In this document: positions 15,350 to 58,964 of the stretch, in pieces | How positions within the stretch are numbered: the first letter of the stretch is position 1 | Layout: each line of letters begins with the position of its first letter | Origin: Chloranthus sessilifolius | Taxonomy: Eukaryota; Streptophyta; Magnoliopsida; Chloranthales; Chloranthaceae | Assembly (NCBI GenBank): GCA_021018995.1 | Contig: CM037591.1 | Location: 71,575,901-71,639,900 of the forward strand | Length of the DNA: 64,000 nt | Reading direction: 5' to 3' | Translations under genes and position numbers: made by a program | The notes under the pieces: model-generated | Told to the model about the DNA's origin: nothing | Seen by the model: only the letters and a program-made list of their open reading frames with translations | The model's database searches: none

Positions 15350-15602
15350 TAGCGCAACTATTTGTTGTGCCAGGTATATGTACAATAAAATAATGCATGA
15401 ACAGTGCCTGAAAGTTGGCTCCCCGAGGTGGGGTTCACCTTAATGTTAGCACAACTATTAGTTGCGTCAAGCCATTTCTGGTGAGTGATGGCTTGGCGTA
15501 ACTAATAGTTGCGCCAAACTTATTTATAATTGGTGCAACTATTAGTTACACCAAGCCATTTCTGGGGAGAATTGTCCTGGCGTAAATATTAGTTGCGCCA
15601 AA
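15350..15602. repeat. Five dyads GGCGCAACTA-W-TAGTTGCGCC in U3 of element C
   Basis: Copies at about 15350-15372, 15446-15470, 15493-15518, 15530-15555 and 15577-15602. Each has arms like TTGGCGCAACTA and TAGTTGCGCCAA around a single A or T. Most arm differences are single substitutions. Two more copies lie at 45253-45324 in the same element, between its antisense genes. Confidence 0.85.
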
Positions 15603-16017
15603 TCCGTAAGGGGATTTTCATGAAATTACTATCTTGCCCCTCGGGTTGGGACCGCCATATCTTTACCTACACAGCTCCGATTGGGGTGATTCTTGGACGG
15701 TTGGCAAGCTGGAGATTTTTACTTTTAATGGTATAAGATTCGATCATAGTAGAAGGTCATAGCTAGTCTCGGTGCACCACTCCTCATCCATAGCTTGGGA
15801 AAACTAGGTTCAAGTCCAGAACGGGTTCTAAGGGTCGAGATTGGTTTCTAAGGGTTTGGAAAGGTTCCTAAGGGATCTAGGGTGATTCCTAAGGGTTTAG
15901 AAGGGTTCCTAAGGTTTCAAAAGGTTCTTAAGGGTTAACATTCCATCAAAAGCTCGGTGACGTGCCTCTCTCGAAATGTGTTTCGATCGGGCCTTAGGCC
16001 AAATTTGGGTGTCTAAA

Positions 16018-16030
16018 GATGCCCCTCTTT
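16018..16030 (-). promoter_or_regulatory. Polypurine tract, element C
   Basis: On the - strand ACCAAAGAGGGGCATC directly precedes the LTR, identical in core to the tract of element D (38300-38314). Confidence 0.75.
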
Positions 16031-16636
16031 GGTATCCGATCACTAATGATCGAATGCCAAAGAACAGAGACATCCGAAGAGTCCCAAGGCATTACTGACG
16101 GGGTAGCTGTATTTAGAATGAACTTGAAACATCAGATGAATGACATGGTGAGAAAACGAAAGCATGTATGTCAGGCTAAACATTTGTTTCTTAAGGTAAT
16201 CGCTCCCCAAGCGCTTAGCGACATTACTGGGCATAACTGTGGTCGGATGAGTTGCGAATGCCTTATAGTCGGGAAAAACATTCGCTTCTCGGGATGATTT
16301 TAAGGTATTTGATGTTCGCGATTCATTCTAAATACAACAGCTTCGCAAGTAAGAGGGGTGATCGACCCACACTTAAAGATAGGTGCAACGCAAGTATGCA
16401 AAGCTCCACAGTTTGTGTCCAATCCTATGAGGCATTGAGCGCCTCATCTGACTGGTCATGGGTGCCCCTGCGTGAAGCAAGGTTCAAGGTCTTTGGGTGA
16501 ACCCATTGATCCTAAAATTTATTTAGCATGACTACCAAACGGAGCGAACGGAGGACGCACCTCTTTTTGGGAGTACGTGCCATTTTTCCAATGTATCCCA
16601 GATCATCATGAGCCAAAGTATCTAACCTTAAATAAC
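16031..16636 (-). other. 3' UTR end of element C
   Basis: Non-coding. The block 16405-16600 is a diverged direct copy of 40596-40790 (shared CAAGGTCTTTGGG/CGAGGTCTTTAGG, TTTATTTAG/TTTATTTGG and CTTTTTGGGAGT). The two lie close together once D is removed, so the C 3' UTR contained a duplicated block of about 200 bp. It ends with target duplication ATAAC (16632-16636) of element D. Confidence 0.65.
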
Positions 16637-17020
16637 TGTAGACACCCAAATTCGGCCCAAGGCTCGATCAATCTGTACTTTGGGAGAGATGTACCCCTGT
16701 GCTTCGGATGGCACCCCCCTGAACCCTTAGGAACCTACCTAGACCAGTAGGAATCACCCTAAGACCTTTAGAGCTATTCCCCCAATCCTTAGAAGTCACC
16801 CCTACACCCTAGAATCCCTTCCTAGACCTAACTTAAACCCTTCTGGCGGTTGATGGGGGGAGAGCTATAGAATTTCACACAGACTAGAACCATGGCTAAG
16901 CCATATACCATTGGAAAGAAGACTTCTCCAGCTTTCCAACAAGCCAATGATCACCCAATTTGGAGCTACGGTTCAAAAGTTATGGCCGTTTTAAGTTTCA
17001 CATAAAATCATGAATTTTAC

Positions 17021-17242
17021 TCAGGCGTAGATATTACATACGCCCAGCCATTTTTACCCCAGATTACTCAGGCGTATATATTATATACGCCTGGCTATTT
17101 TGGGGAAAATTTGGCCGGGCGTATATAATATATACGCCCAGTATAGGTGGGACCCACCACGGGTTTCATCTTCTCAAAACTCCCCTGATTTTGGTGAAAA
17201 TTACTGTTCCTAAACTGGGCGTATATAATATATACGCCCAGC
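17021..17242. repeat. Four dyads GGGCGTATATA-A-TATATACGCCC in 5' LTR of D
   Basis: Copies at about 17021-17047, 17069-17093, 17117-17141 and 17215-17242. The best are perfect inverted repeats with 11-bp arms around one base, often extended by flanking CTG/CAG. Matching positions in the 3' LTR are 38700-38911. They lie 276-497 bp upstream of the TATA box, as in element C. Confidence 0.85.
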
Positions 17243-17517
17243 TTAGCTACAGTAACTGTCATCAGTAGCTCGAAATTCCTCCATCTAGTTTGACTCTTTG
17301 ACCATCCCCTTGGCTGAGGGGGGTGTCTTGAGATTGGTTGCACCCCCTTTGAGCTTATTGGCAACCCTTAAGTCACCCATGGTCTCACCCCATCATCCGC
17401 CATTGAAACCAGTTTCCCAAAACCCTAGGACCTTGAAAACCCAAAAAACCTTAGATGGGGGATTACCTAATTGCTAAACCAATTAGCTCTTAAGTAAGCC
17501 CCTAACCCATCCCTTCT

Positions 17518-17527
17518 CTATAAATAG
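17518..17527 (+). promoter_or_regulatory. TATA box, 5' LTR of D
   Basis: CTATAAATAGACAGG is a canonical plant TATA box. Transcription would start about 30 bp downstream, near 17550. The 3' LTR copy is at 39188-39197. Confidence 0.7.
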
Positions 17528-18228
17528 ACAGGCCCCCCTATTCCTTAAGGGTTAAATTTTTGTTGAAGGATTAGATAAGTGCTTAAGAGAGAACCCTAGT
17601 GAGAGAAAATGCGAATATTTTCTAGAATTCCAGCATGCATACTTCACCTATTTCAACCCATTTCCACCATTAGATCACTCCCTTTTGCAAAAGTCTAGCC
17701 TCTAGCTTTACTCTACACCCCTTACTTTATTGAATCCTAGCATTAGAACCCATTTTCACACCATTTAAGCCATCGGAAGCATGCCAAAGCGAAGATCTTC
17801 CACGGTGCAACAAGGGCCCGTGAGCTCCGGCTCACCCCTCTCTTCCTCTACCTTCTTAGTGTCTCCTCCATCCAAGGATTCAAGTCGTTACGCCGCCAAA
17901 ATTTCGGTTTGGCTCAAAGCTTGATAGGACCGTATTGCCTTCGGGCAAGGGGAAACTCCGCCCTTTTATTTTTATTTTTGGCCATAGATAGAGACCGCTA
18001 CGTGCGGGTTGATCGGGTGTCTAAACCCTTCCCGATCGATAATCGAAGCCCCTACCCTAGAGCCTTTGGCAAAGACCGGTAAATCAGAGTCATATTTAGC
18101 ACTTCGGTGCTGAAAATATCGATTTGAAGGTTTCCCGGGTCACCAAAAGCTCCGGGTGGCGACTCTACATTTTATTCAAGGCGAGCGCATCGCCGCGACA
18201 GGTTCAAGAGGATCCACGGTTGCACAGA

Positions 18229-18246
18229 TGGCGACTCTGCTGGGGA
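18229..18246 (+). promoter_or_regulatory. Primer binding site, element D
   Basis: TGGCGACTCTGCTGGGGA lies two bases after the LTR end. From memory this is the tRNA-Arg-type primer site reported for Ogre and related Tat elements. The partner position after the 3' LTR is host (element C) sequence, which confirms that this is the 5' side. Confidence 0.75.
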
Positions 18247-19900
18247 TTTCACCCTAGCGCTTCCCCTCTTGTTGGCCTTTCCTTTTATTTTGTTATTTTA
18301 CTAACCATGGCTGTTTTTTGTTCTAATTTGCTGATGTTTTTCGCTATTTTTTATTATTTTTACTAATGTACTCACCCCTACAATTCAGTCCTTTACGTGC
18401 CTTAGCCGTTTGGCGGGCCTACTTGCGCCTTAAATTTCAGCTTTTACGATTCTAGTCATTTAAGCCGCCTTAGCCGTTTGGCGGGCCCGCTCGCATTTAT
18501 TTTCACGTCATTTAAATTTTGGTCATTTACAAGCCTTAGCTGTTTGGAGAGCCTACTTGCGCACTTTATTTCGGTCATCATATTTCACCTTTGAATGCTT
18601 GGCAGAATGGCCCGTTGAGGCGTTTGTCATGATTTTGGACTTAATTTCACTCCCTATAAAATTTATAATTAAAGTGAACCAACGATGGGGACATAATTGA
18701 ATTTATTTTGCATTTTGGGTAGTTTCGGGGTTTAGGCACGTATACAATTTACGGTTCGATGGTAAGAAGGCAGCCCTAGTGGTGATGATCTTGAAAGAAC
18801 CACCTTCCAAGATTACGAGAAGGCGCTTGCGCCGGAGGTATATCGGTTGGGTTGCCAATTCCGATCAAGCCGTAAAACCCGCATTGGTGAGAGCGTAGAA
18901 AACCCAAAATTCAGCCGTGTATCCCTAGAAAACGGAAAGGAGGACCCGATAACAAACACTTGATTCCCGGAGCATTTCTCCCAAGAAACCAGTTCAAAGA
19001 CCCACATTGCTTCTTGTCATCAAGCAGATCCTTTTGCAGCGTATATAATATATCGCCCCAAAATTTGATTTACAGCGTGTATATAATATATGCCAAAGAA
19101 AATCCCAAATTTAAGTATATAATATATCCACCCCAATTCCCCGATTAGCGGTATTAGTGTCCGCGGTAGCCTCCCACATTCTCTAACACCCAATATGCCC
19201 CCGCCCAGTCAAAAGAAGGCGACTTCTTATTGATTTGCTCCGGGGGATCGGGTCATTTGCGTGGATTCCCTCGCCTTCAATAGAACGAAAGGGTTCCCTT
19301 TCGCTTCATCCGAAGTGTGTTGGAACCCGCCGTGGGACCTACTAAAGGTACATATATCGCCCAAAACGGGAGTTGACCATGGGCACCAGGTCATCAGTCA
19401 TCTAAGTAGAGGGGAGTTAATTGCAAAAAAAGAGAAAGAAAATCCTCATCTTAAAAAAAAATCCACCTTCAAAAAAGAGGGAAAAATCAATCAAAATCAA
19501 AAATCAAAAATCACAAAATTCACTTTTCAAAACAAAATAAAATCATTTTCCAAAACCCAAAAAAAAAACACACAAAGAAAAACAATCAAAAATATACCTT
19601 GGAGTGACCGGCACTACGGCAACCTCAAACCCGCCCCGTAGGAGAAGAACCAGGAAGGTATTCGGCCCTTATCCGTGACATCAATACAACACTCATCGGC
19701 GGATCATGTCAAGAGCCGATACATCCCCACCGTCATCCCCTTCCCATTCCCGTATAGGAGAAGACACGGTCTCCGACACCTTCACCCAAGCCAGGTTCGA
19801 TATCACAGGCCCATTTGGAGCGCCCGTGTTCACTTCCACCTCATCCCCTTCCCTTACATTCCCCTAACATACCCCTTTTTCGTCCCCTACTGAAACCCCT
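18247..19900 (+). other. Untranslated leader of element D
   Basis: Long leader without a credible gene before the proline-rich gag. It has three blocks sharing GCCTTAGCCGTTTGGCGGGCC (in parts: GCCTTAGCCG and TTTGGCGGGCC) near 18401, 18467 and 18535, a degenerate direct repeat of about 65 bp. It also has three partial copies of the element's dyad (19036-19131) and an A-rich stretch at 19430-19600. Long leaders are usual for Ogre/Tat elements, and some splice them; no splice pair was assigned here. Confidence 0.6.
19036..19131. repeat. Three GTATATAATATAT dyad copies in D leader
   Basis: Copies at 19036-19058 (GCGTATATAATATATCGCCC), 19073-19093 and 19112-19131. They match the LTR dyad in the core but have weaker GC arms. 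They lie about 800 bp downstream of the primer site and well before gag. Confidence 0.7.
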
Positions 19901-22643: not shown

Positions 22644-22677
22644 ATTTTCCACCCCCGCTCCTACCTATCAAATCCAA

Positions 22678-23480: not shown

Positions 23481-23490
23481 TCAGGTACCA

Positions 23491-25317: not shown

Positions 25318-26360
25318 TAGCTCCTCAGTGAGCTCCTCAAACAATTTGCCGATTTTGAGCATGGACCTACCCCGATCGTCGAAGAGACAGAGGATGTCAA
25401 TTTGGGCACCACAGAGGCCCCCAGAATCACCAAAATCGAAATGTCACTGTCCCCTGTGGAGAGGAAAGGTATGATAGACTTCCTTCGGTCATACCAAGAC
25501 GTCTTCGCATGGTCGTATGAGGACATGCCTGGTTTGGATACCGATCTGGTTGAGCATGAGTTGCCACTGTACCCCGATGTTAAGCCGGTGAAACAGAAGC
25601 TGAGACGACTCCGACCCGAATGGATGTTGAAGGTGAAGGATGAGGTCATTAATGATGTATGTGAGGTTTCTCATGGTATCCAAGTACCCGATGGCTAGCC
25701 AATATCATCCCCGTACCAAAGAAGGATGGAAGCGTTCGAATGTGTATCGACTTCCAAAATCTCAACAAGGCGAGCCCTAAGGATGATTTCCCACTACCAC
25801 ACATCGACATTTTGGTCGATAACACTGCAAAGCACGGGATGCTCTCGTTTGTGGATGGATTCTCAGGATATAATCAGATAAAGATGGCAGAGGTTGATCG
25901 CGAGAAGACAGCATTTATTACCCCCTAGGGAACCTTCTGCTACAAAGTAATGCCATTCGAGCTGAAGAATGCTGGGGCAACCTATCAAAGAGCAATGACG
26001 GCCCTGTTCCATGACATGGTGCACCGAGAGATCGAAGTATACGTCGACGACATGATTGCCAAATCGCCAGAAAGGGAGGACCACTTGATAAACCTACAGA
26101 AGCTATTCGAGAGGCTGAGAAAATATAGATTGCGGTTGAATCCCCAGAAATGTGCATTTGGCGCTATGTTCGAAAAGCTACTGGGCTTTATTGTCAGTAG
26201 GAGAGGGATCGAGGTCGATCCGACCAAGATCAAGGCCATCACTGAGATGCCACCACCGTCTACAGAGAAGGAAGTCAGAGGCTTCTTAGGCAGGATCCAG
26301 TACATCAGCCAATTCATCACACAGTTAACTCCGATATGCGCACCAATCTTCAAGCTACTG
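25318..26360 (+). pseudogene. Reverse transcriptase of element D
   Basis: Ty3-type RT motifs in order: FAWSYEDMPGLD with HELPLYPDVKPVKQKLRRL (N-terminal), MCIDFQNLNKASPKDDFPLP, MLSFVDGFSGYNQIKM, KTAFITP, MPFELKNAGATYQRAM and IEVYVDDMIAKS (YVDD catalytic box), then LRLNPQKCAFG and KLLGFIVSRRGIEVDP. Close to C at 50780-51700. Decayed with several breaks. Confidence 0.85.
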
Positions 26361-26700
26361 AGAAAGGACTCACCAGTTGAGCGGAATGATGACTGCCAGG
26401 CTGCATTCGACAAGATTAAAGGTTGTCCCCTGAAACCTCCGGTATTGGTATCGCCTGTACTTGATAGACCCCTGATACTGTACTTGTCCACGACTGAGTT
26501 TTCCATGGGTTGTGTGTTAGGACAGCGTGATGAGACGGGAAGAAGAGAGCAGGCCATCTATTACCTAAGCAAGAAATTCACTAATTACGAGACGCGCTAT
26601 TCTCATCTGGAGAAAGCATGCCTGGCGCTCATTTGGGCTACTCAGAGACTTTGACACTACCTGTTATCCCAGGCCGTTCTACTTCTAGCACGGATGGATC
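26361..26700 (+). pseudogene. RNase H of element D
   Basis: Connection and RNase H segment after RT: LLRKDSPVERNDDCQAAFDK, PVLDRPLILYLSTTEFSMGC, YYLSKKFTNYETRYSHLEK and CLALIWATQRL. This is the ordinary Ty3/Gypsy RNase H, which removes the RNA template during reverse transcription. Confidence 0.75.
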
Positions 26701-26772
26701 CGTTGAAGTACCTATTCGAGAAACCTGCTCTCACTGGCCGAACCGCACGTTGGCAACTGCTCCTATCCGAGT

Positions 26773-28636: not shown

Positions 28637-29269
28637 GTCTTGGGACAAGGTAAGTTTCGATAAAAGTAGATGCGTGACCGCTTAAGGGCTCCATAAAAGA
28701 GGCCATCATTTCAAAGTCAAGTAGCCCAAATGAATATTCCCTGAAAACCTTCACCCTTTTTTGCTACACACTTCGGGCCAACAACCATTTCTTTCATATA
28801 CCCCACCCAAAATTCCCAAAAAAAGAAGAAAGAAGAAAAGGGAGGAAAAATCCAAACCAAAAGAAGAAGAAGAAGGCACCTCCCAAAAAAAAAACAACAA
28901 AGAAAAGGAGGGGTACCCAAAAAAAAATGAATTGGGACTGGGGCATAAAAAGCCTTTAAAAAGAAAAAGGAGTCCCCGAATCTAGAATCACCCCAAACTT
29001 AGATCCAAATCCCCAGAAAAACCCAACCTGTTTGAACCCCAACCACATTACAACCCGGAAGAAAGCCCTCTTTAAGGTCCACAAGCGGTTATAACATCTA
29101 CTGCATCAGAACAAGCCGAGTTAACAAACCACACAGAACTTCATTCATTATATGAATCGACGCCCATGTCGTGGCTTTACAGTTCTGAGAAAAGAAAAAA
29201 AGAAGAAAAGAGAAAAAAAAAAAAAGAAAAAAAAAAAAAGAAAAAAAATTTGAGTTCAAAGCAAGGCGG

Positions 29270-29440
29270 ACGTAGTGAAAACCCGAAAGGGCGCCACGGG
29301 TAAAAAGAACTCACGGACGAGTGAAAACGAAAGGGCACACAGGGTAGAGGAACCCATGGGCGTGGTGGTGAAAACCCGAAGGCGCTTCTGAGTAAAAGCA
29401 TGATGACAGGCATGGCGAAAACCCGTCTTGGGCGCTATGA
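29270..29440 (+). repeat. GAAAACCCGAAAGGGCGC units, element D
   Basis: Four units near 29277, 29322, 29370 and 29416 share GTGAAAACCCGAAAGGGCGC or variants. On the opposite strand, element C has the same unit (GCGCCCTTTCGGGTTTTCAC) about three to four times at 47630-47790. The unit is therefore an old shared feature of the 3' region, just beyond the end of the second antisense gene. Confidence 0.65.
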
Positions 29441-29699: not shown

Positions 29700-30600
29700 A
29701 TAGGACCCACTGGTTTGGCCCATAAAAACCTCACATACATGAGGAAGAAAATTCAAAAAGAAAATAGATTTCCCTTTCCCATAAAAAACCTCCCCGTATG
29801 AGGAAGGAAATTGTAGAAAAGATAATGGATTTCCCTTTCCCATAAAAAACCTCACCCAGAAAATTCAAAAAGATAATAGATTTCCCTTTCCCATAAAAAA
29901 CCTCACCATGAAGAAAATTCCAAAAAAGATAATAGAATTCCCTTTTCCATAAAAAAACTCACCCTGTGAGGAAGAAAATTTTAAAAAAGATAATAGATTT
30001 CCCTTTCCCATAAAAAAAACCGCACCCTGTGTGGAAGAAAATTTCAAAAAAGAAAATAGATTTTCCATTCCCCTAAAAAACCCCACCCTGTGAGGAAGAA
30101 AATACCAAAAAAGATAATAGATTACCCTTTCCCATAAAAAAACCTCACCCTGTGAGGAAGAAAATTCCAAAAAAGATAATAGATTTCCCTTTCCCATAAA
30201 AAACCTCACCCTGTGAGGAAGAAAATTCCAAAAAAGATAATAGATTTTCCTTTCCCATAAAAACCTCACATTCAAAAAGAATAATAGATTTCCCTTTCCA
30301 TAAAAACCTCACCAGTGATTTAAGAAAATTTCAAAAAAGATAATAGATTTCCTTTCCCATAAAAAGCCTCACCATGTGGGAAGAAAATTCAAAAGATAAT
30401 AGATTTCCCTTTCGACAAAAGCCTCACCACAGGAGGAAAATTCAAAAAAGATAATAGATTTCCCTTTTCCCATAAAAAAGCCTCACCACAGAGAAAATTC
30501 TAAAAGAAAATAGATTTTCCTTTTCCACAAAAAGCCTCTAAGAAGAAAATTCAAAAAAGGTAATAGATTTCCCTTTTCCATAAAGAAAGAAAATTCCACT
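29700..30600 (+). repeat. Tandem array of 50-63 bp units, element D
   Basis: About 15 head-to-tail copies built from AGATAATAGATTTCCCTTTC, CCATAAAAAACCTCACC and CTGTGAGGAAGAAAATTCC. Central copies (29940-30290) are the most alike and outer copies are shortened, as expected from repeated unequal exchange or slippage. Element C has no such array, so it arose in the D lineage. Confidence 0.85.
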
Positions 30601-30973
30601 TTTTCATGGAGGAGAAAATTCCAAAAACAAAAAAAACAGAAACCCCACCAGGTGAAAAAAAAAAAGAAGAAAAAATCCCATAAAAAGTCTTACATTGCAG
30701 GATTACAAAAAGAAAAACAAGAGCGCATGTATAGATTTCATTCCCTTCCTTTACAAGTGTTGCCCGCTGAGTGTCACGTCCCAAAAAGATAACGACATGA
30801 CACACTTCCTATTTTTGCTGCTTTCTTTACAACAAAAAGCAAAACCCAAAATGTATATAGCTGTGTATATATGAAAAAAAAGAAAAGAACAGAAAAAGAT
30901 AACCCAAAAAGAGATCTTTGTTAGGGGGGCTTTCCCCCTCGTGTATATGATCTATGATATGTGCAGGAACAGG

Positions 30974-32567
30974 TCAAGGGCCGGGAGCACGCTTCAAAGC
31001 GCTAATCTCTGCAAGCAGGGAGTCCTCGCGGGCATTTCGATCAGACATCCACCTACCATGAAGACTCTTCTGCCGTCTCCGTGAAGCTTCAGCTGCGCTG
31101 CGAGACTCAGTCAAAAGACCAGTCAACCGAAGGACCTCGCTCTCGGCTGTAGCAGCTCTCACCTCCGCAATATCAGCTCTGACTCATTCTTTCTCCAAAG
31201 CCCCGATCAAAGCCAGCCTCTCTAAGGAAAGGGACTCGATCCGAGTCTGAAGCATCGCTTCCTTACATGGCCAGGGCCCTGTCTCTACCACATCTACCGA
31301 AGCTGAGCTAGGGGTAGGTAATTCCTCAGATACCAGCCAACCCTCGTAACCCCGGAGACGCCCCCAAGCAAGCTACACATATCGCCTGATTGGCGAGTTT
31401 CCCGGAGCGCAGCTATGCGATCAAGATCACAAAGAGAACCGAGAGAATATCGAGAGCACAAGGTGGCCTCGTGGTGCCGACACATCTTTGAGTATACCCA
31501 ATTGGCGGAGCACCCGAGATGGGAAGTAGTATGTGCTACGGTCAAGCCCCAAAAGTGTGATGCCCTCACAATCCTGAGGCGGACAATCGGAAGGTGTGCC
31601 GTCCATCGTGAAATTTGCCAGTCAACTGCATCGATATACAGGCTCAGTTCCTCAACGCTCCCACCAGGCAGTCTCGAACTCCGGATCAGAAAACTCCGAG
31701 CCACATCCCCTCTAATCAAGCAAAATCTCGGCACAGGCCCCATGATAGCTAAATGCTCTCGTAACCAGATTCCCGAACAAGGAGGCGGGCTCCTGCTAAG
31801 AATCCCAACCCGGCCCGGCCCGCGACATCCAACCTCGATACATCTCCGCCAAGACCGGTGTACCAATGAGCGACCTCCCTCCAATTTGGTCAAAACATCA
31901 CATAGCCCAAGGAAAAGCTCTCACCCCAGTAAAAGAGAACTTCGACATGACAAATAAAGGGCAAGGCCTTCACATTGAAGGATCTCGAATAGGCAACTTT
32001 CAAAGCCTCGAGTCACCGAAAAGTTCTCTCAGGAATTTCACCGAACACCTGGTGGGCCCTCCGGCGAAACACTTCTCGTATCCACCCTTTTTTAGGCCAA
32101 GGACCGCGTGGACCGCCTTTGCATACCCGGTTTGGGCACTACTTTGGCAAGTCCTCGATGCATCTTCAAGCCGTGAGGGGAGGCTAACTCTTCCAAAGTT
32201 GGGTCGACTCCCTAGACCCAAATTTAAAACATGGGCCCTATGGTCCCATGATGCCAAAGCCACCTAGTAGTAGGTCGAGCAACAGAGGAACAACGAGGAG
32301 AGAAGAAAAGGCAGGACAACCAGACCATTCGAATATGGCAAGCTCGCTCTCGGCCAAACTATCATGCCATTTTTGCAAAAAATTTGGGCCCCGGTCCAAG
32401 CAGGAAGTATATCTGGTCCCGTATAAAGCTTGGGCCCTTTTGAAGAAGCGGAGTCATCGGCGTGCAAAGAGGTTCTTTATCGGTCAATATATGGCGATGG
32501 GCCCGCTAGAAAAAGAGAGAAAGAAAATAAAGGAGGAGCAAACAGCCAAACCAAAGTAAAAAAGGAG
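30974..32567 (-). pseudogene. Antisense gene 2 of element D (DUF7745-like, coiled-coil end)
   Basis: The gene lies opposite to gag-pol. The N-terminal part (32000-32263) has TGYAKAVHAVLGLKKGGYEK and GGPTRCSVKFLRELFG. The middle (31294-31893) has IWLREHLAIMGPVPRFCLIR, DAVDWQISRWTAHLPIVRLR and SLGSLCDLDRIAALRETRQS. The end (30974-31162) is a short coiled coil ending LLAEISALKRAPGP. It matches antisense gene 2 of C (45480-46991). The layout resembles plant proteins annotated as DUF7745, an assignment made from memory. Function unknown. Decayed with several breaks. Confidence 0.6.
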
Positions 32568-32617
32568 ACAAGGATGGAACCAAGCGCGGGTTATAAGGAG
32601 CTCGTTGAGCCCCTATA

Positions 32618-32765
32618 GCGATATATATATTATATCAAGGCAAATTTGAACAAATTTTTTGCGTATATAATATATATACGCCCATTTTTGGGATTGGTCG
32701 GTATATAATATATCGGCCGGACTATTGATTCTTGAATGTTGGCTGGTATATATAATATATGCTCG
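32618..32765. repeat. Four dyads in the gap between the antisense genes, element D
   Basis: Copies at about 32618-32640 (GCGATATATATATTATATC), 32660-32683 (TGCGTATATAATATATATAC then GCCC), 32699-32720 (CGGTATATAATATATCGGCC) and 32742-32765. They lie just upstream of antisense gene 2 on the - strand. In element C the matching gap holds two dyads of the C type (45253-45324). Confidence 0.8.
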
Positions 32766-32999
32766 ATTTAAAAGTGGTAGGCCCCCCTTCACGGTCTATT
32801 TCTTTTCCCAAGGAGGGCGGTTATTTTGACCCACCTTTTCCCTCATCATTGGAGAGGTGCCGGTTCATTCAAGCAAGGAAAGAGAAACCACCAAAGCAAG
32901 GAATACCCAAATAATAAACATTCATATAAACCATGAAAATTATAAACCATCCAAAAAAAAAATTGTTTTTTAAAGTTATTACATATCCCCAAATAAATC

Positions 33000-35248
33000 A
33001 AAAGTCTAAATTGTTCATTATGTCAAATTTTGCAGAAATAAACTAGTCTGGCAGCCCCTTGACTTCTTCGGCTCGCACTTTGAAAGGTCTGGGTCTCCCC
33101 ACCGAGTCCATGCACGAGAGATCTGGCTAAGCAAGGGCGCGACTCCTTTTCACGAGCTGAGAGGCACACCAAAAGCCATCGAGATAGAAAGCAGGGCGGA
33201 AAGTAAACTAGGAAAATGACTAGGTTGGGCGGCATTCACTCACCACTTGGTCTCCCTAAGCCCAACGAGGTTACGGTAGTATTGACGACTCACTTTGCCG
33301 ACTCATAATCCACGGCGATAAGAAAAGGAGGTGTTAGTCACAGGCCATCGGCATAATTCAAAGGAAGAAAGAGCGAAACGAGCAACAAGATAGAGATTAC
33401 CCAGAATCAGCTCGGGAGGTGGGACTGGATAGCTTGAGAAATCCATGCCTTTTACATTCGGCACACGCAGCGTGACAAAAAGGCATCATCCAGCGTTTGA
33501 AGGTCCCACGGACCTCGGCAGGCGATGACTACGAAGCACCACACTAGAAGGGTCGGAGGGTCCGGCACACAGAAGCCACGCCGACCAGCACCCCGGAAGG
33601 ATCGGAGGTCCGGCACTGTTGCATCATAGGGCAGGCCTCCTCTTCCCCTCATCGAGTCGCCGCCAGCTCAAAGCTGAGAGAAACATTTTATCATTAAGGT
33701 GACAGGTCAATCAAAGTAACCACATGAAAGCTCTTGAATGAAAGAAGAAAGGGCATTACACGAGATCGCTGACGCCAAAAGCTAAAAAGTTAGCACCGAC
33801 GCGAAGCGGGCGACAAGAAATGATAGAGGCGTCGTACCAATACCCCGGGCGGAGAAGGTCATCGATAGGAACCCCATGATGAAGAAAGTGAGCGGTGAGC
33901 TCATCAATGGAGCCCTCACAGGGGCCAACACATCGGCGGGAGGAGCTTGGGGGCACAAGAGAGGCGTCTTGATGAACCCTCTCCCCTAAATAGTAGGCCC
34001 TAGTCCGGGACCCGTGAGAAAGATGATCTGACGGTCCGAGCAAAAGGCGAAGGACCCAGAGGCCAAATTCGAAGGGGATCCTATGTAAGGTCGAGGATGA
34101 CAAAAGAAGAAAATCGGAAGGGATGCACATTTGATGAACCCCTAGCACACAAGTGGTATCAAATTTACAAGGAATTGTTTTACACCGGATCAACAAATGC
34201 TTCATACCTACGTCCCGGGCGACCCACGTGCGATTACTCATGAGGGAAACGTAGCAATGTCGGAGGCGAGGCGGCGACCGGTTGAAAGTGAAGGTACCCC
34301 AGACGAGAAAGCGACGAGATGAGGGTATGCTATAAAAGAAAATTGGATAAACTAAAACAAAGATAAAATACCTCGATGGCGGGCGAAACCCACAATGGAG
34401 CTAGACTCCCCAAAGCAGCCGCTTTTTTGGACATGAGTGCAACATAGCAGCCCCAATCGAATCGATGCAGTCTCCCGATTCACCATCGAGTGGCGAGGGA
34501 CAAAGACTCGCCCTCCTTTGGTGTTGGAGGAGAGTCTTGCCGGAAGGAACGATAAGGAGATGCGGGCGGCATAAGTGCTGTGCGAGCTCGATGTAAATGT
34601 CCATGTCAGCTGCCTGGTCCACCAACTCATTAGGCCCGATCAACCAACCAGGATAGCTTGACCTCGAGCCCGAACATTCCACGAGGGCGGTAGGCCCCTA
34701 GCAGTTGAATCACCTCCTCCCTACCCGGTGTGCGGGTAGGTACCACACACCCTCCGTCCCCGGTGATCATAGACCACGAGTGAAGGCCATCTCGAACGCC
34801 ATGTGGAATGTCATCGTCTTGGCAAAACGCCTATCGCTTTTAAATAGGCCGATCAATTTACAATGGGCACGTAAATGAAGTCCCCAAACCGGCAAAGAAG
34901 TAGGTCCTTCACCACTGGGGAAAGGTAAAGGCGTTGAGGTCAAACCAACCGCCTAACATAATGTGCAAAATGCAAGCAAAAAGGCATCACCGAGATAAGG
35001 CAGGGAGATATAATGAGGGCATAAAAGGAAAACAAAAGTGGAAAGGAGGAGGGGGTCCATCTGTTTACCTGACTAGTGATCCCGAAGTTGGACATATGGG
35101 TGTTTGGAGGTGAGAGGAGGCGGTGTGGCCTCGCCATGCATCTCATACCAAGGCCGGGAGGAGCGCAGACACAATGAATCGTTTCCCCACGGGGGCCGTA
35201 GGCCATTTCCGGCCCTTCTTGCTGAACATGCCCCTCGTCACCAGACAT
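33000..35248 (-). pseudogene. Antisense gene 1 of element D (plant mobile domain type)
   Basis: The start MSGDEGHVQQEGPEMAYGPR at 35248 follows a splice acceptor (TTTTCAG then GATGTC). Downstream on the - strand lie 34401-34682 (LIGPNELVDQAADMDIYIEL, HLLIVPSGKTLLQHQ) and 33756-34241 (VGMKHLLIRCKTIPCKFDT, GSIDELTAHFLHHGVPIDDL, GANFLAFG). The start and these blocks align with antisense gene 1 of C, where the PMD hallmark is clearer. PMD proteins include Arabidopsis MAIN and MAIL1 and many transposon-linked copies. Decayed, with introns still present. Confidence 0.6.
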
Positions 35249-35249
35249 C

Positions 35250-35509
35250 CTGAAAACATGAGACCCATCGGCATATGAGGGGTTGCCAACAAAAAAAGAA
35301 GAAAGAGAAAAATATGTATATGCACTAATGCAAAGAATAATAACAAAAAAATAAAAACAACCATGTGTGTATGTATACTAATCCAAAACAAAAAAAGAGA
35401 TGTGTGTGTGTGGGTGCTAAAAAAAAAAAACCAAAAACAACCATGTGTGTATGTATACTAATCCAAAACAAAAAACAGATGTGTGTGTGTGTGTACTAAA
35501 CTAAAAAAA

Positions 35510-35547
<38 letters not shown>

Positions 35548-36136
35548 ATGTGTATGAATACTAATCCAAAACCAAAAAAAAAGAGAGATGTGTGTGTGTG
35601 TGTACTAAACTAAAAAAAAAAAAAAAAACAACATGTGTGTATGTATACTAATCCAAAACAAAAAAAAGATGTGTGTGTGTACTAAAAAACAAAAAAAAAA
35701 CTCATGTGTATATACTAATCCGAAAGAAAAGATGTGTGTATGTACTAAAAGAAAAAAATAAAAAAAATCATGTGTGTGTGGGTACTAAACCAAAAAAGAG
35801 ATATGTGTGTATAAAAAAAAAAAAAAAAAAAACAAAACCATGCGTGAGTGTGCTAATCCAAAAAAATAAGATGCGCTAATCCATCGAAAACAAAAAAAGA
35901 AAGAGAAAATAGGATGAGATGAATAAATAATAGATGAAAAAAATAGGCCTAAGGAAAACAACAAAAAAAAAAAACAATAAAACCGAGAGAAAAGGAACAT
36001 AGGCCTCAATATGTTTAAATGGAAATGAAAAAAAGAAAAAGCATTTCACCATAAAAGAAAAAAAAAGAGAGAGAGAAAAAGAAAAACAATAATGTTATCA
36101 AAATACAAAGAGAAAGTAAGGGAAGGTAAAGGTTAC
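35250..36136 (-). other. Leader intron of antisense gene 1, element D
   Basis: Donor GAAG/GTAACC (intron starts 36136) and acceptor TTTTCAG/GATG (intron ends 35250) give 887 bp, with the ATG one base into the next exon. Element C has the same layout (CAAG/GTAACT to CCCCCAG/GATG, 901 bp). The intron is T-rich on its own strand. In D it has been expanded by a TG-rich minisatellite (35300-35870). Confidence 0.65.
35300..35870. repeat. TG-rich minisatellite inside the antisense leader intron
   Basis: About nine imperfect units of ATGTGTGTATGTATACTAATC, given as ATGTGTGTATGTATAC plus TAATCCAAAAC, and ATGTGTGTGTGTGTACTAAAC, separated by poly-A runs of variable length. Not present in the equivalent intron of C. 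Confidence 0.7.
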
Positions 36137-36300: not shown

Positions 36301-36310
36301 CCAGATTTAA

Positions 36311-36378
36311 ACGGGCGATATAATATATATACGACCATTTTTTTGTCAGATGGTCAGCGATATATTATATACTGACCA
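36311..36378. repeat. Two dyads upstream of the first antisense leader, element D
   Basis: 36311-36336 (GGGCGATATAATATATATAC then GACC) and 36351-36378, where the arms are extended (TGGTCAG ... CTGACCA) around CGATATATTATATA. They lie at the expected promoter side of the antisense PMD gene. Confidence 0.75.
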
Positions 36379-38299: not shown

Positions 38300-38314
38300 C
38301 CAAAGAGGGGCATC
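38300..38314 (+). promoter_or_regulatory. Polypurine tract, element D
   Basis: CCAAAGAGGGGCATC directly before the 3' LTR start TGTAGACACC; the same core as in element C. Confidence 0.8.
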
Positions 38315-39897
38315 TGTAGACACCCAAATTCGGCCCAAGGCCCAATCAATCTGTACTTCGGGAGAGATGTACCCCTGTGCTTCCGATGGCACCCCCCCTG
38401 AACCCTTATGAACCTACCTAGACCAGTAGGAATCACCCTAAGACCTTTAGAGCCATTCCCCCAATCCTTAGAAGTCACCCCTACACCCTAGAATCCCTTC
38501 CCAGACCTAACTTAAACCCTTCTGGTGGTTGATGGGAGGAGAGCTACAGAATTTCACACAGACCAGTACCATGGATGGGCCATATACCATTTGAAAAAGG
38601 ACTTCTCCAGCTTTCCAACAAGCCAAAGATCACCCAATTTGGAGCTATGGTTCAAAAGTTATGGCCGTTTTAAGTTTCACATAAAATCATGAATTTTACT
38701 CAGGCGTAGATATTACATACGCCCAAATACCATTTTACCTCAGATTACTCAAAGTATATATTATATATACCGCCTATTTTGGGGAAAATTTGGGCGTATA
38801 TAATATATACGCCCAAAGATAGGTGGGACCCACCACGGTTTCATCTTCTCAAAACTCCCCGATTTTGGTGAAAATTATCGTTTCTAACCGGGCGATATAA
38901 TATATACGCCAAATTTTAGCTACAAGAATCGCCATCGAGCTCAATTTCCTCCATCTAGTTTGACTCTTTGACCATCCCCTTGGCTGAGGTGGGTGTCTTG
39001 AGATTGGTTGCACCCCCTTTGAGCTTATTGGCAACCCTTAAGTCACCCATGGTCTCACCCCATCATCCGCCATTGAAACCAGTTTCCCAAAACCCTAGGA
39101 CCTTGAAAACCCAAAAAACCTTAGATGGGGGATTACCTAATTGCTAAACCAATTAGCTCTTAAGTAAGCCCCTAAGTCATCCCTTCTCTATAAATAGAGA
39201 GGCCCCCCTCTTCCTTAAGGGTTGAATTTTTGTTGAAGGATTAGAGAAGTGCTTAAGAGAGAACCCTAGTGAGAGAAAATGCGAATATTTTCTAGAATTC
39301 CAGCATGCATACTTCACCTATTTCAACCCATTTCCACCATTAGATCACTCCCTTTTGTTAAAGTCTAGCCTCTAGCTTCACTCAACACCCCTTACTTTAT
39401 TGAATCCTAGCATTAGAACCCATTTTCACACCATTTAAGCCATCAGAAGCACGCCAAAGCGAAGATCTTCCACGGTGCAACAAGAGCCCGTGAGCTCCGG
39501 CTCACCCCTCTCTTCCTCTACCTTCTTGGTGTCTCCTCCGTCCAAGGATTCAAGCCGTTACGCCGCCAAAATTTCAGTTTGGCTCAAAGCTTGATAGGAC
39601 CGTATTGCCTTGGGGCAAGGAGAAACTCCGCCCTTTTTATTTTTATTTTTGGCCATAGATAGAGACCGCTACGTGCGGGTTGATCGGGTGCCTAAACCCT
39701 TCCCGATCGATAACCGAAGCCCCTACCCTAGAGCCTTTGGCAAAGACCGGTAAATCATAGTCATATTTAGCACTTCGGTGCTCAAAATATCGATTTGAAG
39801 GTTTCCCGAGTCACCAAAAGCTCCGGGTGGCGACTCTACATTTTATTCAAGGCGAGCGCATCGTCGCGACGAGTTCGAGAGGATCCACGGTCGCACA
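38315..39897 (+). repeat. 3' LTR of element D
   Basis: TGTAGACACCC to CACGGTCGCACA, 1583 bp, followed by target duplication ATAAC (39898-39902). Close to the 5' LTR except in 38692-38951, the dyad block, where differences are dense. TATA box at 39188-39197. Confidence 0.9.
38700..38911. repeat. Dyad block in 3' LTR of D
   Basis: Counterparts of the four 5' LTR dyads, near 38701-38724, 38755-38775, 38791-38813 and 38889-38911. The third (GGGCGTATATA, A, TATATACGCCC) is perfect; the others are weaker than their 5' LTR partners. Confidence 0.75.
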
Positions 39898-39902
39898 ATA
39901 AC

Positions 39903-41394: not shown

Positions 41395-41536
41395 TCTCCC
41401 CCTCTCTTCAAAACCAAAAACCGGCCTCCCCTAGGGTTCCTTTACATTGCTTCTACGCATGCCTCATTATCGGCATTCACTCGTGCCAATCGATCGTCAT
41501 CTCACGCAAGATCAAAGACCCCATCTTCTTCACAAG
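41395..41536 (+). other. Untranslated leader exon of antisense gene 1, element C
   Basis: CTCCCCTAGGGTTCC to TCTTCTTCACAAG, followed by the donor GTAACT. It resembles a plant 5' UTR (CT-rich, CTAGGGTTCC). The 5' end is inferred. It is followed by a 901-bp intron. Confidence 0.45.
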
Positions 41537-42437
41537 GTAACTATTTAAAACTCATTTTCCTTGATTTTTCTTACTTTTTCTTACAAATATGATCATGATC
41601 TTGCATTCTTTGATGAGTAATGATTTATTTTTATGGTATATATGCTTATTGGTGATGTGTGGAAGATTTCTTATGAACAATGCCCTATTTTTGTTATTTT
41701 ATGGATTTATTGGTGCCTAATATACATATTTTTTTGTTGTTTTTTATTTTTTGTTTTTTTTGTTTTTATATTGTATATGAAGCAATGGATTTTTGGATTT
41801 TATTTTTTGAACACTAATTTAGGGAAAAAGGGATTTTCGATTTCTTTTTTTTGAATTTTAATTAAGGAAAATGATTTTTGACTTCTCTTAAAATTAAGAT
41901 AACAAGGGATTTTATATTTTGTGTAGTTTTGAAAACTAACTAAGGCATTGATTTACTATTATTTATAATTTTTGTGTTGGGTTTTTTTTTTTTTTTTATG
42001 GGCATAAACTATGTGTTTTTTTTTTGTAGTTTTTGTTTTTATAAAAGAAAGGCTCTTCTATTTTTGGTTTTTGATTTTGGGAGCATAAAAGGTTTTTTTT
42101 TTGTGGCTTTTCTAATCATAAAAGAGAAACTTTTTCTTCGATTTTTTATTTTTAAAAGCATAAGGAAATGATCATGATCTTTTTTTTTTTTAACTTCCTT
42201 TATTTTTAAACATAGAAAAAGGGAAGTTTGTTTTATTTTTCATTTTCTTTTGGAAATAAAAGGGGAGGGATTTTTTTTATTTTCAATCTAAAAGAGATTT
42301 TTTTGTATGAGTGTATCTTTATTTTCTGACAATGAACAGAAGGAGGGTGAGCATAATTACCTTCCCTTGGTGTGAAGCATAAAAAATCGTTCTTTATCAC
42401 TAATCTGCTCTGATGTGATTGCTTTCTGTTCCCCCAG
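41537..42437 (+). other. Leader intron of antisense gene 1, element C
   Basis: Donor CAAG/GTAACT and acceptor TTCCCCCAG/GATG. Strongly T-rich, as expected of a plant intron in this orientation. Size and borders agree with the D intron (887 bp). Confidence 0.65.
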
Positions 42438-42438
42438 G

Positions 42439-44833
42439 ATGTCCGGTGATGATGAGTATGTTCCCGAGGAGGGCCATGAGGATGGGCCAGAGATAGTTTA
42501 TGGTCCGCATGGGCTTCCTGGATAGATGAGCGGGCCCTTTGCTCAAAATGCAGGGTGAGGCTGCCCGGGTTGGCCTCCTAAATCAACAGTATGCTCACAT
42601 TTCAAATTTTGGCATAGCAGCTAGGTAAGAGACCGGTTCAATTTTTTCTGTTGCGCAGTTTTGCTTTATTTCCATGATCTAATGCACTTTCCTTTGGATG
42701 CAGGACCTTCCCTCTATTGTATTCCGTGGGGGTGGCTTGATTTCCATGATTTCTACCTTTATGTCCCCCCCGTGGTGAAGTTCTTACTGGCACAGGTGAG
42801 CTTTGGGGAGTTTCTGTCTTGCCTTGCTATGAGGGTCGATATCGTGTATCTGAAGGCATTGATTGAGCGGTTCTGCCTCGAGATGATGACCTTTCATATG
42901 CCGTACGCTGAGATGACCCTGACTCCCGTAGATTGGGCTATGATTACTGGCATTAGGAGGGGCATACCGATCGCCAGTCTCACAGTGCCGAGCAAGGAAG
43001 ACATTATCAGAATGATAGGGGCATATCTCCCTCGTGGGCAGATACACGGCACCGAGGTCAAGATGGCCTGGTTATCGACGCTCTATACGGTTGATGAGTT
43101 GGTGGATCTGGGGTAGCCAGATAGGGTGCTTTACATTATGCTTGAGCGGGCAATCATCCTGGCCCGCATCACCCTCCTGCTCCTGCTGGGTAAGACCCAT
43201 TTTACCAACGCGAGCGGCGGTCAGGTTAGCCTAGCGTTGCTGAGCATTATGGACAACTGGGGCGATGTCCATAGGTACAATTGGGGCGGGGCTGGATACC
43301 CATGGTTGATGTATGGCGTAGCCCGGGCTACCATCGGGGATGCCAAGTTCGTCATTGGCTTTTGGGCGGCTTTGGAGGTAATCCCTAGCCTTTTACTTCT
43401 ATCAGTTCCACTTGGATGATCTTCGTATGTTACTGACTTATTCTCTTGCACACTGCTCTTCTCAGGTATGGGGGTACCACCAATTTCATCATGGGAGCCT
43501 GCTCCTCCACTCGGATGCATTCACCTACCCTTTTCTTATCAACTGGAACCATGCTTTGTGCCGTGATGTGGGCCTGAAGCACCTAGAGATGGGCTTGAGG
43601 TTCCAACTCGACCTGATGGTCCCTGTTCATTTCAGCTAAGAAATTCTCCCTAATTTGCTATGCTGCTTATCTGATTGATTGGCTACTTCTTGACTTGGAC
43701 AAATCCTCCATGATCCGTACCTCAACTCCATCGTCTGGGACCGGGCAGCCGTAGGTCCATCGCGCCTTCTCAACAACTGTCACGTTATTTTCTTTTATGG
43801 GGCATGGGCGAGGGTTTACTATTTGGGGGAGCGGGTGGTGCACTAGTATCAAGGTTATCACGCAATACCCATGGACCCTCCGGCCGATGTCATGGGCCCT
43901 ACTGACAGCGTTGAGGAACTCACAGCGGATTTCCTTTATAATGGGCTCCCTATCAATGCCCTTCTTGTGCTCGAAGATTATCACATATGGTACGAGTACT
44001 TGCCGTATAGGTTCATCTTAACGAGCTTCGTCCCTAGCGCTAACTTTCTTGCATTTAATGGCCCGCACGGGCAGGTAACTCCCCCTCTTTTTTTCCAGAT
44101 TAGTCCCCCTTTTATTTTAAGTCGGCCTTGTTTTTTCTGAATAGATTTTTATTTTGTTCACAGTTTGCTCAAGGGGATGGCTCAGATAATGAAGGCGGGG
44201 TGGCGGTGGGTATAGTTGATACCTTAGGGGCAGGCCCCTCAAGTGCCGGCCCTTCTGGTGGGGGTCCCTCGGGCAAGGGTTCTTGTGGCGTTGGTCCGTC
44301 GGGTACCTCTCATGCTGGTGCCCCTGGTGGTGATCCGACCGTGGTCTATGGGACCTGATGCCTTGATGATAGCTTTCTCTTAAGCCTATGTGCTGATGTG
44401 GCTAAGCAGGCACGCATCTCCGCTGAAGTGGCCTGGCCCCCTCCTCTTGAGGTTATTCCAGGGGCAAGCCTTTTCATGACTATTCCTTCTTTGTTTCGGC
44501 CTCTTGATTGGCAACTGATATTCTATCCTTCTGACTGTAGGACTTTGACTCGGCTATGGAGTACGCGACATATCATCGTAACATCTCGAAGCTTCGAGAG
44601 ATGGAAACAGTGAGTATCCTGCCGCTCAGCCTTTCTTAATGATTCTACTTTCCTCGGTTCCTCAATTGATCCTGATTCCTAATTTTGATTATGGCTTGCA
44701 GCGTGCACGTGCCAAGGAGTCGCGATCCTTGCTTAGAAAGATTTCGCAGGCATGGTCTCGGGTGGGAGACATGCAGACCTACCAAGGCTCCTCATGTCGG
44801 CGGATGAAATCAAAGGGCGCTAGCAAAGATTAG
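42439..44833 (+). pseudogene. Antisense gene 1 of element C (plant mobile domain protein)
   Basis: Starts MSGDDEYVPEEGHEDGPEIV. The stretch 42661-43116 carries the PMD hallmark CLEMMTFHMPYAEMTLTPVD, then AMITGIRRGIPIA; compare the family pattern 'tFHLPxGExTiTLxDvaxlxGlxxxG'. Later blocks: SLALLSIMDNWGDVHRYNWG, LMYGVARATIGDAKF, NHALCRDVGLKHLEMGLRFQ, SVEELTADFLYNGLPINALL, then a Gly/Pro/Ser-rich tail and a basic end (SSCRRMKSKGASKD). Intron-like borders remain (for example GCTAG/GTAAGAG to TTGGATGCAG/GACC). A captured host-type gene running opposite to pol. Decayed with several breaks. Confidence 0.65.
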
Positions 44834-45252
44834 GCCTCAGTTTCTGCATTTTTGAACAATTCAAACATTTTAACACTTTTTGAGGCAATTTTATTGGAAT
44901 TTTTGCAAAGTTTGTAAAAGATATTTCTGGCATGGGATGATTTTCTATTTGGACATGTTCAGTGCTTTTCTTTGATTGCAATGTTATCTTTCTTGCCTAT
45001 ACCCCACTGCTTGTAGGAAGATCTTGATGATTGCCCATGAAAGTGTCCCTTGATGCTGCATGCCTTGGTGCGGGCTTCTTCTGCACAAGAGTCAAATTTA
45101 TTTTTAATGTTAGATGCCTTTTTAACTCTTAGGTGCAACTGTCTTTATAAAGCGAGTGAATCAGGTCAGCAAGCTATGGGAGCCGGTAGTGGCTTACAAA
45201 ATAATAATAAAAAATCAGAAAGAGTGGGATGAGGGCGGGGGGGGATTTTGTG
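44834..45252 (+). other. Gap between the antisense genes of element C
   Basis: 3' UTR-like DNA of antisense gene 1 (T-rich, ending near 45000), then unassigned sequence before the dyads. No gene seen. Confidence 0.45.
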
Positions 45253-45324
45253 CTGGCACAACTATCAGTTGCGTCAGGCTTAATCTGAGACAAAATGCAC
45301 TGGCGCAACTAATAGTTACGCTAG
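45253..45324. repeat. Two dyads in the gap between antisense genes, element C
   Basis: 45253-45278 (CTGGCACAACTA, T, CAGTTGCGTCAGG) and 45300-45324 (CTGGCGCAACTA, A, TAGTTACGCTAG). They are the C-type dyad found in the C LTR and lie about 160-230 bp before antisense gene 2, the same place where D carries its own dyad type. Confidence 0.8.
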
Positions 45325-58940: not shown

Positions 58941-58964
58941 CTCAGGCCCAGGTATAGCAGCCTC

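What the first reader, a model, noticed from the sequence alone, without database searches (positions are those of the whole stretch)
15350..45324. Two sister elements carry different dyads with one architecture: GGCG, six bases, one centre base, six matched bases, CGCC
In C the U3 dyads read TTGGCGCAACTA, A or T, TAGTTGCGCCAA (five copies, 15350-15602). In D the same part of U3 carries GGGCGTATATA, A, TATATACGCCC (four copies, 17021-17242). The outer GGCG/CGCC and the single central base are kept, the inner six bases differ completely, and both arms changed together in nearly every copy. Shared descent plus coordinated change points to selection on the dyad itself, either as a dimer-binding site or a hairpin, with rapid turnover of specificity. 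VANC anti-silencing proteins of Arabidopsis VANDAL transposons bind short, fast-diverging motifs clustered in their own non-coding DNA. The analogy is inference, but I know of no such system described for LTR retrotransposons.
Basis: partly seen in the sequence, partly recalled or inferred. Interest (0 to 1): 0.9.

Follow-up and report, generated by a model that had tools for sequence, protein, structure and literature searches.

The report
Family-specific palindromes in retrotransposon control DNA
Two related plant retrotransposons each carry many copies of their own short palindrome, in the long-repeat control region and again just ahead of their extra antisense genes, which suggests that each family has its own DNA-recognition code, although no binding protein has been shown.

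Summary
The dyads are real and above chance. The finding is stronger than stated in one way and weaker in others.

Stronger: the D core (TATATA-N-TATATA, up to 1 mismatch) occurs at 16 loci in 64 kb. Fifteen lie in non-coding clusters of element D: both U3s, the 5' leader, and upstream of two antisense gene regions. Shuffles average 0.14. The C core recurs in C's U3 and upstream of C's second antisense gene. Outside the dyads, U3 and internal clusters share no detectable sequence, so matching motifs at unlinked sites suggest a sequence-reading factor. C's antisense ORFs score weakly as plant mobile domain, reported for Ogre elements. A third element shows the same layout with another motif.

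Weaker: the inner six bases differ at three positions, not six. No C copy is perfect. Arm covariation alone does not prove selection, because template switching in hairpins also produces it. D's two LTRs, identical at insertion, now differ by clustered complex changes at the dyad shoulders.

Best reading: binding sites of a symmetric DNA-binding factor, possibly element-encoded, laid out as for foamy-virus Bel1/Tas. Binding is untested. No other genomic copies could be searched.

The parts
14336..16017 (-). 3' LTR of element C (Ogre-like, minus strand; its 5' LTR is inferred to lie beyond the window)
   Evidence: about 71% identity to D LTR ends; PPT-like AAAGAGGGGCATC before the U3 start; TATA at 15058. 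Boundaries approximate.
15351..15599 (.). five C-type dyads in C U3, centres 15361, 15458, 15505, 15542, 15589
   Evidence: 17-19 of 20 arm bases match GGCGCAACTA/TAGTTGCGCC
45255..45322 (.). two C-type dyads (centres 45265, 45312, spacing 47) upstream of antisense ORF 2 of C; TATA-like TTATATACT at 45350
42625..44140 (+). C antisense ORF 1 fragments, plant-mobile-domain-like (below Pfam cut-off)
   Evidence: PF10536 E=2.4e-6 (27.4 bits, cut-off 34.9) on 42625-43116; E=0.071 on 43117-43419; no such match on 43847-44140
45436..46739 (+). C antisense ORF 2, plant-mobile-domain-like (below Pfam cut-off)
   Evidence: PF10536 E=0.0012 (18.5 bits) on 45624-46187; no Pfam match on 45436-45747 and 46323-46739
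16638..18226 (+). 5' LTR of element D; TSD ATAAC, TATA 17518, PBS-like TGGCGACTCTGCTGGGGA at 18229
17024..17238 (.). four D-type dyads in D 5' LTR U3 (centres 17034, 17081, 17128, 17228)
   Evidence: three perfect 10/10
19037..19132 (.). three D-type dyads (cores 19042, 19080, 19116) in the 5' leader
32617..32768 (.). four D-type dyads (cores 32624, 32664, 32702, 32747/49) upstream of antisense ORF 2 of D
   Evidence: (printed sequence)
31294..32476 (-). D antisense ORF 2 region (broken frames), matching C 45532-46268
   Evidence: tblastx C/D matches
36311..36377 (.). two D-type dyads (cores 36317, 36359) upstream of the D antisense ORF 1 region
   Evidence: (printed sequence)
33400..35377 (-). 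D antisense ORF 1 region (broken frames; assigned by position and partial resemblance)
   Evidence: no Pfam match on 33756-34400 or on 34352-34639 and 34940-35377
38316..39897 (+). 3' LTR of D, 94.7% identical to the 5' LTR (1494 of 1578 ungapped columns)
   Evidence: TSD ATAAC follows
38703..38910 (.). D-type dyads in D 3' LTR U3 (centres 38713, about 38762, 38803, about 38900)
   Evidence: one perfect, three altered
55326..55563 (.). motif CTATTCGAAAAG array in U3 of element E, left LTR (8 sites, up to 2 mismatches)
60367..60485 (.). same E motif (5 sites) just upstream of E's accessory ORFs
62597..62886 (.). same E motif (9 sites) in U3 of E, right LTR
57603..60020 (-). E accessory ORFs; the first matches Transposase_32
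   Evidence: PF20167 E=6.6e-10 (39.6 bits, cut-off 45) on 58965-60029; no match on 57603-58964

Best explanation
Each dyad type is the binding site of one symmetric, sequence-specific DNA-binding factor. Elements C and D (two related Ogre-like Ty3/gypsy elements) keep arrays of their own site in U3, about 290-530 bases upstream of the LTR TATA box, and again ahead of antisense accessory genes (one in C, two in D); D also has an array in its leader. Binding at all sites would couple the LTR promoter and the accessory-gene promoters into one circuit. SHOWN: dyad arrays, their placement in non-coding DNA, one type per element, no flanking similarity between U3 and internal clusters of one element, positional correspondence of the U3 arrays. 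INFERRED: that a protein binds, that it acts as a dimer, that it activates or de-silences transcription, and that the element's own plant-mobile-domain-like protein is that factor.
For: D core with up to 1 mismatch: 18 hits = 16 loci in 64 kb, 15 in D non-coding clusters (both U3s, leader, two accessory-gene upstream regions), 1 in C pol; 50 shuffles mean 0.14, max 2. C core with up to 1 mismatch: 6 of 6 in C's two clusters. With cores masked, U3 and internal clusters of the same element (three D comparisons, one C) show no similarity better than E=1, so the internal clusters are not detectable copies of U3. The core is kept in D leader and internal sites whose GC arms are degenerate or carry 1-base indels, which fits sequence reading better than stem stability. 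Spacing 47 bp recurs in U3 of C and D and in the C internal pair. A third element, E, repeats the layout with another motif: 22 of 32 hits in U3 and just upstream of its accessory ORFs, 10 elsewhere; 50 shuffles mean 6.8, max 12.
Against: No protein, binding or expression evidence. Only one LTR of C and one copy of D are available; no other genomic copies could be searched. The covariation signal rests essentially on one C/D contrast. D's 3' LTR has kept one perfect dyad out of four, C's dyads are decayed, and C dyad 15589 scores nearly as well as D type (16 against 18). One C-core match with 2 mismatches lies inside D (32261). Upstream of C antisense ORF 1 only two 3-mismatch C-core hits exist (41074 and 41121, 47 apart), and at 3 mismatches the whole window has 32 hits against a shuffled mean of 22.9, max 38, so that array is not shown. 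The internal clusters of C and D are not alignable to each other as DNA (best E 0.29). For E the U3 and accessory clusters were compared only unmasked and do match (E=2e-5), so duplication is not excluded there. Plant mobile domain matches are below Pfam's cut-off, none was found in the D frames scanned, and the D antisense frames are broken.
Confidence: 0.5

Rival explanations
1. Mutational origin: hairpin-directed template switching (quasi-palindrome correction), during DNA replication or reverse transcription, creates and repairs the arms, so paired changes need no selection.
For: The two D LTRs, identical at insertion, differ at 1 of 52 columns within 6 bases of a dyad centre, 7 of 32 at 7-10, 23 of 84 at 11-20, 14 of 92 at 21-40, and 72 of 1429 at all distances beyond 20; 9 of 10 complex differences (3 or more columns) fall at 17047-17264. 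Each sister LTR has a longer perfect arm at a different dyad: 14 at 38803 against 11 at 17128; 13 at 17228 against 0 at 38901. The mechanism is documented for stems in RNA genes (PMC8794818, abstract and opening).
Against: It acts locally and does not explain why unlinked clusters in one element carry the same core, nor their placement upstream of genes, nor the kept core where arms are degenerate. The hot spot itself is only moderately supported: in a circular-shift test 38 of 1591 placements reached the observed 31 differences (mean 10.6), and a placement more than 60 bases away reached 32. E LTRs show no excess at their short motifs (4 of 96 motif, 10 of 175 between, 111 of 1508 rest).
Confidence: 0.25
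2. RNA structure: the U3 array, which lies in the 3' end of the genomic RNA, folds into a strong multi-hairpin element (export, stability, 3' processing, or double-stranded RNA that feeds small-RNA silencing).
For: Folding of the U3 array: D 5' LTR -110.3 kcal/mol, z -12.1; C -107.8, z -9.2; D 3' LTR -72.6, z -7.9; 0 of 200 shuffles as low in each. In C the predicted structure pairs neighbouring dyads with each other into one long stem.
Against: Any palindrome array scores so. The internal and leader dyads keep the core sequence but have poor stems by eye (they were not folded). A hairpin needs pairing, not the same sequence at unlinked sites.
Confidence: 0.12
3. Host factor sites: ordinary enhancer repeats for a host transcription factor, with different host factors for C and D.
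For: Repeated enhancer motifs in U3 are usual in LTR elements (general knowledge). Motif arrays in U3 or U3-like DNA also occur in E and its partial relative.
Against: Two sister elements keep one architecture while the core changes at every locus, which a conserved host factor does not by itself explain. Not separable from the main reading without binding data.
Confidence: 0.13

Closest known systems
Ogre (Tat) LTR retrotransposons with plant-mobile-domain extra ORFs (Neumann 2019, PMC6317226, one passage seen)
   Same: Ty3/gypsy, long internal region, plant-mobile-domain-like extra ORFs (reported in 57% of Ogre elements). The tRNA-Arg primer type of Ogre is recalled, not tested.
   Different: The passage does not mention dyad arrays; the term palindrom does not occur in its main text
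Foamy virus Bel1/Tas circuit (PMC517496 and PMC4929722, starts of abstracts in the listing)
   Same: Layout: response elements of one factor in the LTR and in an internal promoter
   Different: Animal virus, no homology tested; here the accessory genes of C and D are antisense and binding is unproven
VANC anti-silencing proteins of Arabidopsis VANDAL transposons (PMC5735166, PMC10398659, passages)
   Same: Family-specific short motifs, many copies, mainly in non-coding DNA of the element, differing between related families
   Different: VANDAL motif YAGTATTAY is nine bases in same-orientation tandem arrays, not a 21-base dyad; that VANDALs are Mutator-like DNA transposons is general knowledge; no VANC homologue was looked for
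Retand elements with antisense TRP28 ORFs (Vicient 2025, PMC11963269, abstract, section 11 part 1 and section 12 read)
   Same: Antisense ORFs between pol and 3' LTR, suggested to be DNA-binding regulators
   Different: Transposase_28 rather than plant mobile domain; the term palindrom occurs only in its reference list
Arabidopsis MAIN/MAIL1 (plant mobile domain) and the 'DOWN' promoter motif (PMC7156037, passages)
   Same: Plant mobile domain proteins linked to a promoter motif and to transposon silencing
   Different: Host proteins; the motif letters were not in the passages seen, so no comparison with the dyads was possible

Membership tests
Ogre/Tat Ty3-gypsy LTR retrotransposon | paired LTRs with target site duplication, PBS, PPT | tested here: met
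   D: LTRs 94.7% identical, TSD ATAAC on both sides, TGGCGACTCTGCTGGGGA after the 5' LTR, purine tract AAAGAGGGGCATC before the 3' LTR. C: only one LTR in the window.
Ogre/Tat Ty3-gypsy LTR retrotransposon | Ty3/gypsy-type reverse transcriptase and RNase H | tested here: met
   PF00078, PF17919, PF17917 on 25929-26654; some homologues are named Ty3-G or 17.6-type. Lineage within gypsy was not tested by a tree.
Ogre/Tat Ty3-gypsy LTR retrotransposon | plant mobile domain in an extra ORF (57% of Ogre in PMC6317226) | tested here: inconclusive
   C: E=2.4e-6 and 0.0012, both below Pfam's cut-off; D: none in the five antisense frames scanned, one of which has a weak HTH_23 match, E=0.05, below cut-off
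VANC-type anti-silencing system | family-specific motif arrayed in non-coding DNA of the element | tested here: met
VANC-type anti-silencing system | element-encoded protein that binds the motif and removes DNA methylation | not testable with these tools
   no binding or methylation data
VANC-type anti-silencing system | VANC protein homologue | not tested
   no VANC sequence was compared
Bel1/Tas-like LTR plus internal-promoter circuit | the same site type in U3 and upstream of an accessory gene | tested here: met
   C, D and E; that these upstream regions are promoters is inferred from TATA-like boxes only
Bel1/Tas-like LTR plus internal-promoter circuit | accessory protein binds both sites and activates both promoters | not testable with these tools
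   no assay

The most novel reading that the evidence does not exclude
Plant LTR retrotransposons (the Ogre-like C and D, and E) encode their own fast-evolving, sequence-specific regulators in accessory genes. These read a family-specific dyad code placed in U3 and at the accessory-gene promoters; protein and dyad co-evolve, so sister families become mutually insulated, a VANC- or Tas-like circuit in LTR retrotransposons.
Probability: 0.28. Interest if true: 0.88.

Novelty: new variant of a known kind. Interest (0 to 1): 0.62.

Why it matters
What the extra, often antisense, genes of Ogre- and Retand-type elements do is open (Vicient 2025 calls the function of the Retand proteins unknown and suggests regulation). 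If the dyads ahead of those genes and in U3 are the targets of their products, the question becomes directly testable with a DNA-binding assay on a 21-base probe. It would also give plant LTR retrotransposons a self-recognition code that changes between sister families.

Tried and rejected
Relatives elsewhere: exact patterns of both dyads in viral contigs gave 0. An alignment of the D reverse transcriptase segment with 10 of the 120 listed homologues (of 4656 reported) found no confirmed locus in viral or genome contigs. The 120 listed homologues are 58-71% identical; those with an organism name are from angiosperms; the host was not identified. Accessory proteins: no homologue at E<=0.001 for E's first accessory ORF or for the C antisense ORF 1 fragment (the search needs shared 5-residue words and like length); no useful solved structure for the latter (best E 0.16). 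Folding of E's accessory protein without an alignment failed (mean pLDDT 34.7) and no fold search was made. Literature: of 22 papers holding a dyad string, 20 were listed, all through the two 10-base half strings, and by title they are unrelated. Topic searches (one search returned none) showed no such dyads in the titles and abstract starts listed; beyond that I saw only the passages and sections named above.

Rejected: the claim that the inner arms differ completely; the idea that internal clusters of C and D are detectable duplicates of U3; hairpin stability alone as the conserved feature. The indel-tolerant scan missed several dyads because of non-overlapping best matching and was not used for counts. 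The C core at up to 3 mismatches is uninformative (32 hits, shuffled mean 22.9).
Full report
WHAT THE WINDOW HOLDS. The window is nested plant LTR retrotransposons. Element D (plus strand) runs from about 16638 to 39897, with LTRs 94.7% identical, target site duplication ATAAC and a PBS-like stretch right after the 5' LTR. It sits inside element C (minus strand), whose 3' LTR is about 14336-16017 and whose internal part resumes after 39897; C's 5' LTR is inferred to lie outside. C and D pol regions are 72% identical in DNA, so they are sister families. Both have antisense ORFs between pol and the 3' LTR. In C two of these match the plant mobile domain (PF10536, E=2.4e-6 and 0.0012, below Pfam's cut-off); in D none of the five antisense frames scanned does. 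Neumann et al. 2019 report this domain in 57% of Ogre elements (passage), so 'Ogre-like' is the best name, not tested by a tree.

THE DYADS. Alignment of the two U3s places the dyads at corresponding points, with spacings 47, 47, 100 in D and 47, 37, 47, 97 in reversed C. The consensus half sites GGCGCAACTA and GGCGTATATA differ at three positions. Covariation over 13 dyads is above shuffled controls for pairing (0 of 500) and score (1 of 500), but not for the number of pairs changed on both sides (55 of 500) or further pair types (335 of 500).

THE NEW POINT: UNLINKED CLUSTERS WITH THE SAME TYPE. Scanning the whole window showed that dyads are not confined to U3. D has three in the leader (19042-19116), four upstream of antisense ORF 2 (32624-32749) and two upstream of the antisense ORF 1 region (36317-36359), all with the D core. 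C has two upstream of antisense ORF 2 (45265, 45312), with the C core and the same 47-bp spacing. The D core with up to one mismatch is found at 16 loci in 64 kb (18 hits, two loci counted twice); 15 are in D's non-coding clusters and one in C pol; 50 shuffles average 0.14. D's first U3 dyad (17034, 38713) is too changed to be among these. The C core with up to one mismatch occurs 6 times, all in C's clusters; at two mismatches one more C dyad and one stray match in D (32261) appear. With the cores masked, U3 and internal clusters of one element have no similarity to each other better than E=1 (four comparisons). So the motif itself, not a recognisable duplicated block, is what the sites share. 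The antisense ORF 2 clusters of C and D lie in corresponding places, judged from the flanking coding matches (C 45532-45651 with D 32420-32301); the cluster DNA itself does not align between C and D (best E 0.29). In both a TATA-like box follows within about 40 bases. A splice-acceptor-like CTAG also follows, so an intron is possible instead of a promoter. Upstream of C antisense ORF 1 no clear array was found: two 3-mismatch hits (41074, 41121) lie 47 bases apart, but such hits are at chance level in the window.

A THIRD ELEMENT WITH THE SAME LAYOUT. Element E (minus strand, LTRs about 54036-55814 and 61377-63137, 93.3% identical) has a short ORF that looks like the end of pol (60770-61105, by eye) and two accessory ORFs, the first matching Transposase_32 (PF20167, E=6.6e-10, below cut-off). 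Its own near-palindromic motif CTATTCGAAAAG (up to 2 mismatches) has 32 hits: 8 and 9 in the two U3s, 5 just upstream of the accessory ORFs, 10 elsewhere; 50 shuffles mean 6.8, max 12. E's two arrays do match each other unmasked (E=2e-5), so here a duplicated block is not excluded. A partial relative at the left end of the window (72% identical to E over 1647-3238) has a different U3-like array, ACCTATCGAA, with 15 of 21 hits at 3476-3980 and shuffles mean 3.0, max 6. That E is Athila-like is recalled from its pol end and domain, not tested.

MUTATION PATTERN. The two D LTRs were identical when D inserted. They now differ at 1 of 52 columns in the dyad centres, 7 of 32 in the outer arms, 23 of 84 at 11-20 bases, 14 of 92 at 21-40, and 72 of 1429 beyond 20 bases in all; 9 of 10 complex differences lie in 17047-17264. 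A circular-shift control was only moderately strong (38 of 1591 placements reach the observed 31; a placement more than 60 bases away reaches 32). E's LTRs show no such excess. Hairpin-directed template switching, or cutting at the base of extruded stems, would give this. Sequencing or assembly error at palindromes cannot be excluded.

RNA STRUCTURE. As RNA the U3 arrays fold far better than shuffles (z -12.1, -9.2, -7.9). This follows from the palindromes and cannot by itself separate DNA from RNA function. The leader and internal sites keep the core while their stems look poor (by eye), which favours sequence reading.

MECHANISM. The best account is a symmetric DNA-binding factor that reads the family's dyad in U3 and at the accessory-gene promoters. 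That it is the element's own accessory protein is a further inference. It is in line with Vicient 2025's suggestion that Retand antisense proteins are DNA-binding regulators (sections read) and with the foamy-virus Bel1/Tas layout (start of abstract). C's dyads are decaying mainly by C>T and G>A (14 of 17 deviations), as expected of methylated, silenced DNA.

LIMITS. No other genomic copy could be searched: the genome search did not answer in 17 tries, and the scans of viral and prokaryote collections found no relatives. All conclusions rest on one copy of each element. The two accessory proteins searched had no homologues at the search's sensitivity, and the one structure prediction failed.

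Noticed in passing
55326-55563, 60367-60485, 62597-62886: A third LTR element (E) has its own near-palindromic motif CTATTCGAAAAG arrayed in both U3s and just upstream of its accessory ORFs.
   Followed up: yes
3476-3980: U3-like DNA of a partial E relative carries 15 copies (up to 1 mismatch) of a different motif, ACCTATCGAA, which resembles E's motif with about one base fewer per arm.
   Followed up: partly
7688-8020: Degenerate inverted and direct repeats of TTCGATTGATC / TTCGATCGAA type (five copies of a 34-nt repeat at 61% identity or more). The one pattern tested was not above shuffles (8 hits, mean 6.8). Element not identified.
   Followed up: partly
17047-17264 compared with the same part of the LTR at 38316-39897: Complex sequence differences between D's sister LTRs concentrate at the dyad shoulders while the dyad cores are almost unchanged (1 of 52 columns).
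   Followed up: partly
29719-30627 and 35332-35902: Repeat arrays in D between pol and the 3' LTR, a feature also reported for Retand elements.
   Followed up: no
29215-29380 and 47661-47837: A stretch after pol is shared by D and C at 76%; the C part has repeated words such as CCCGAAAGG.
   Followed up: no
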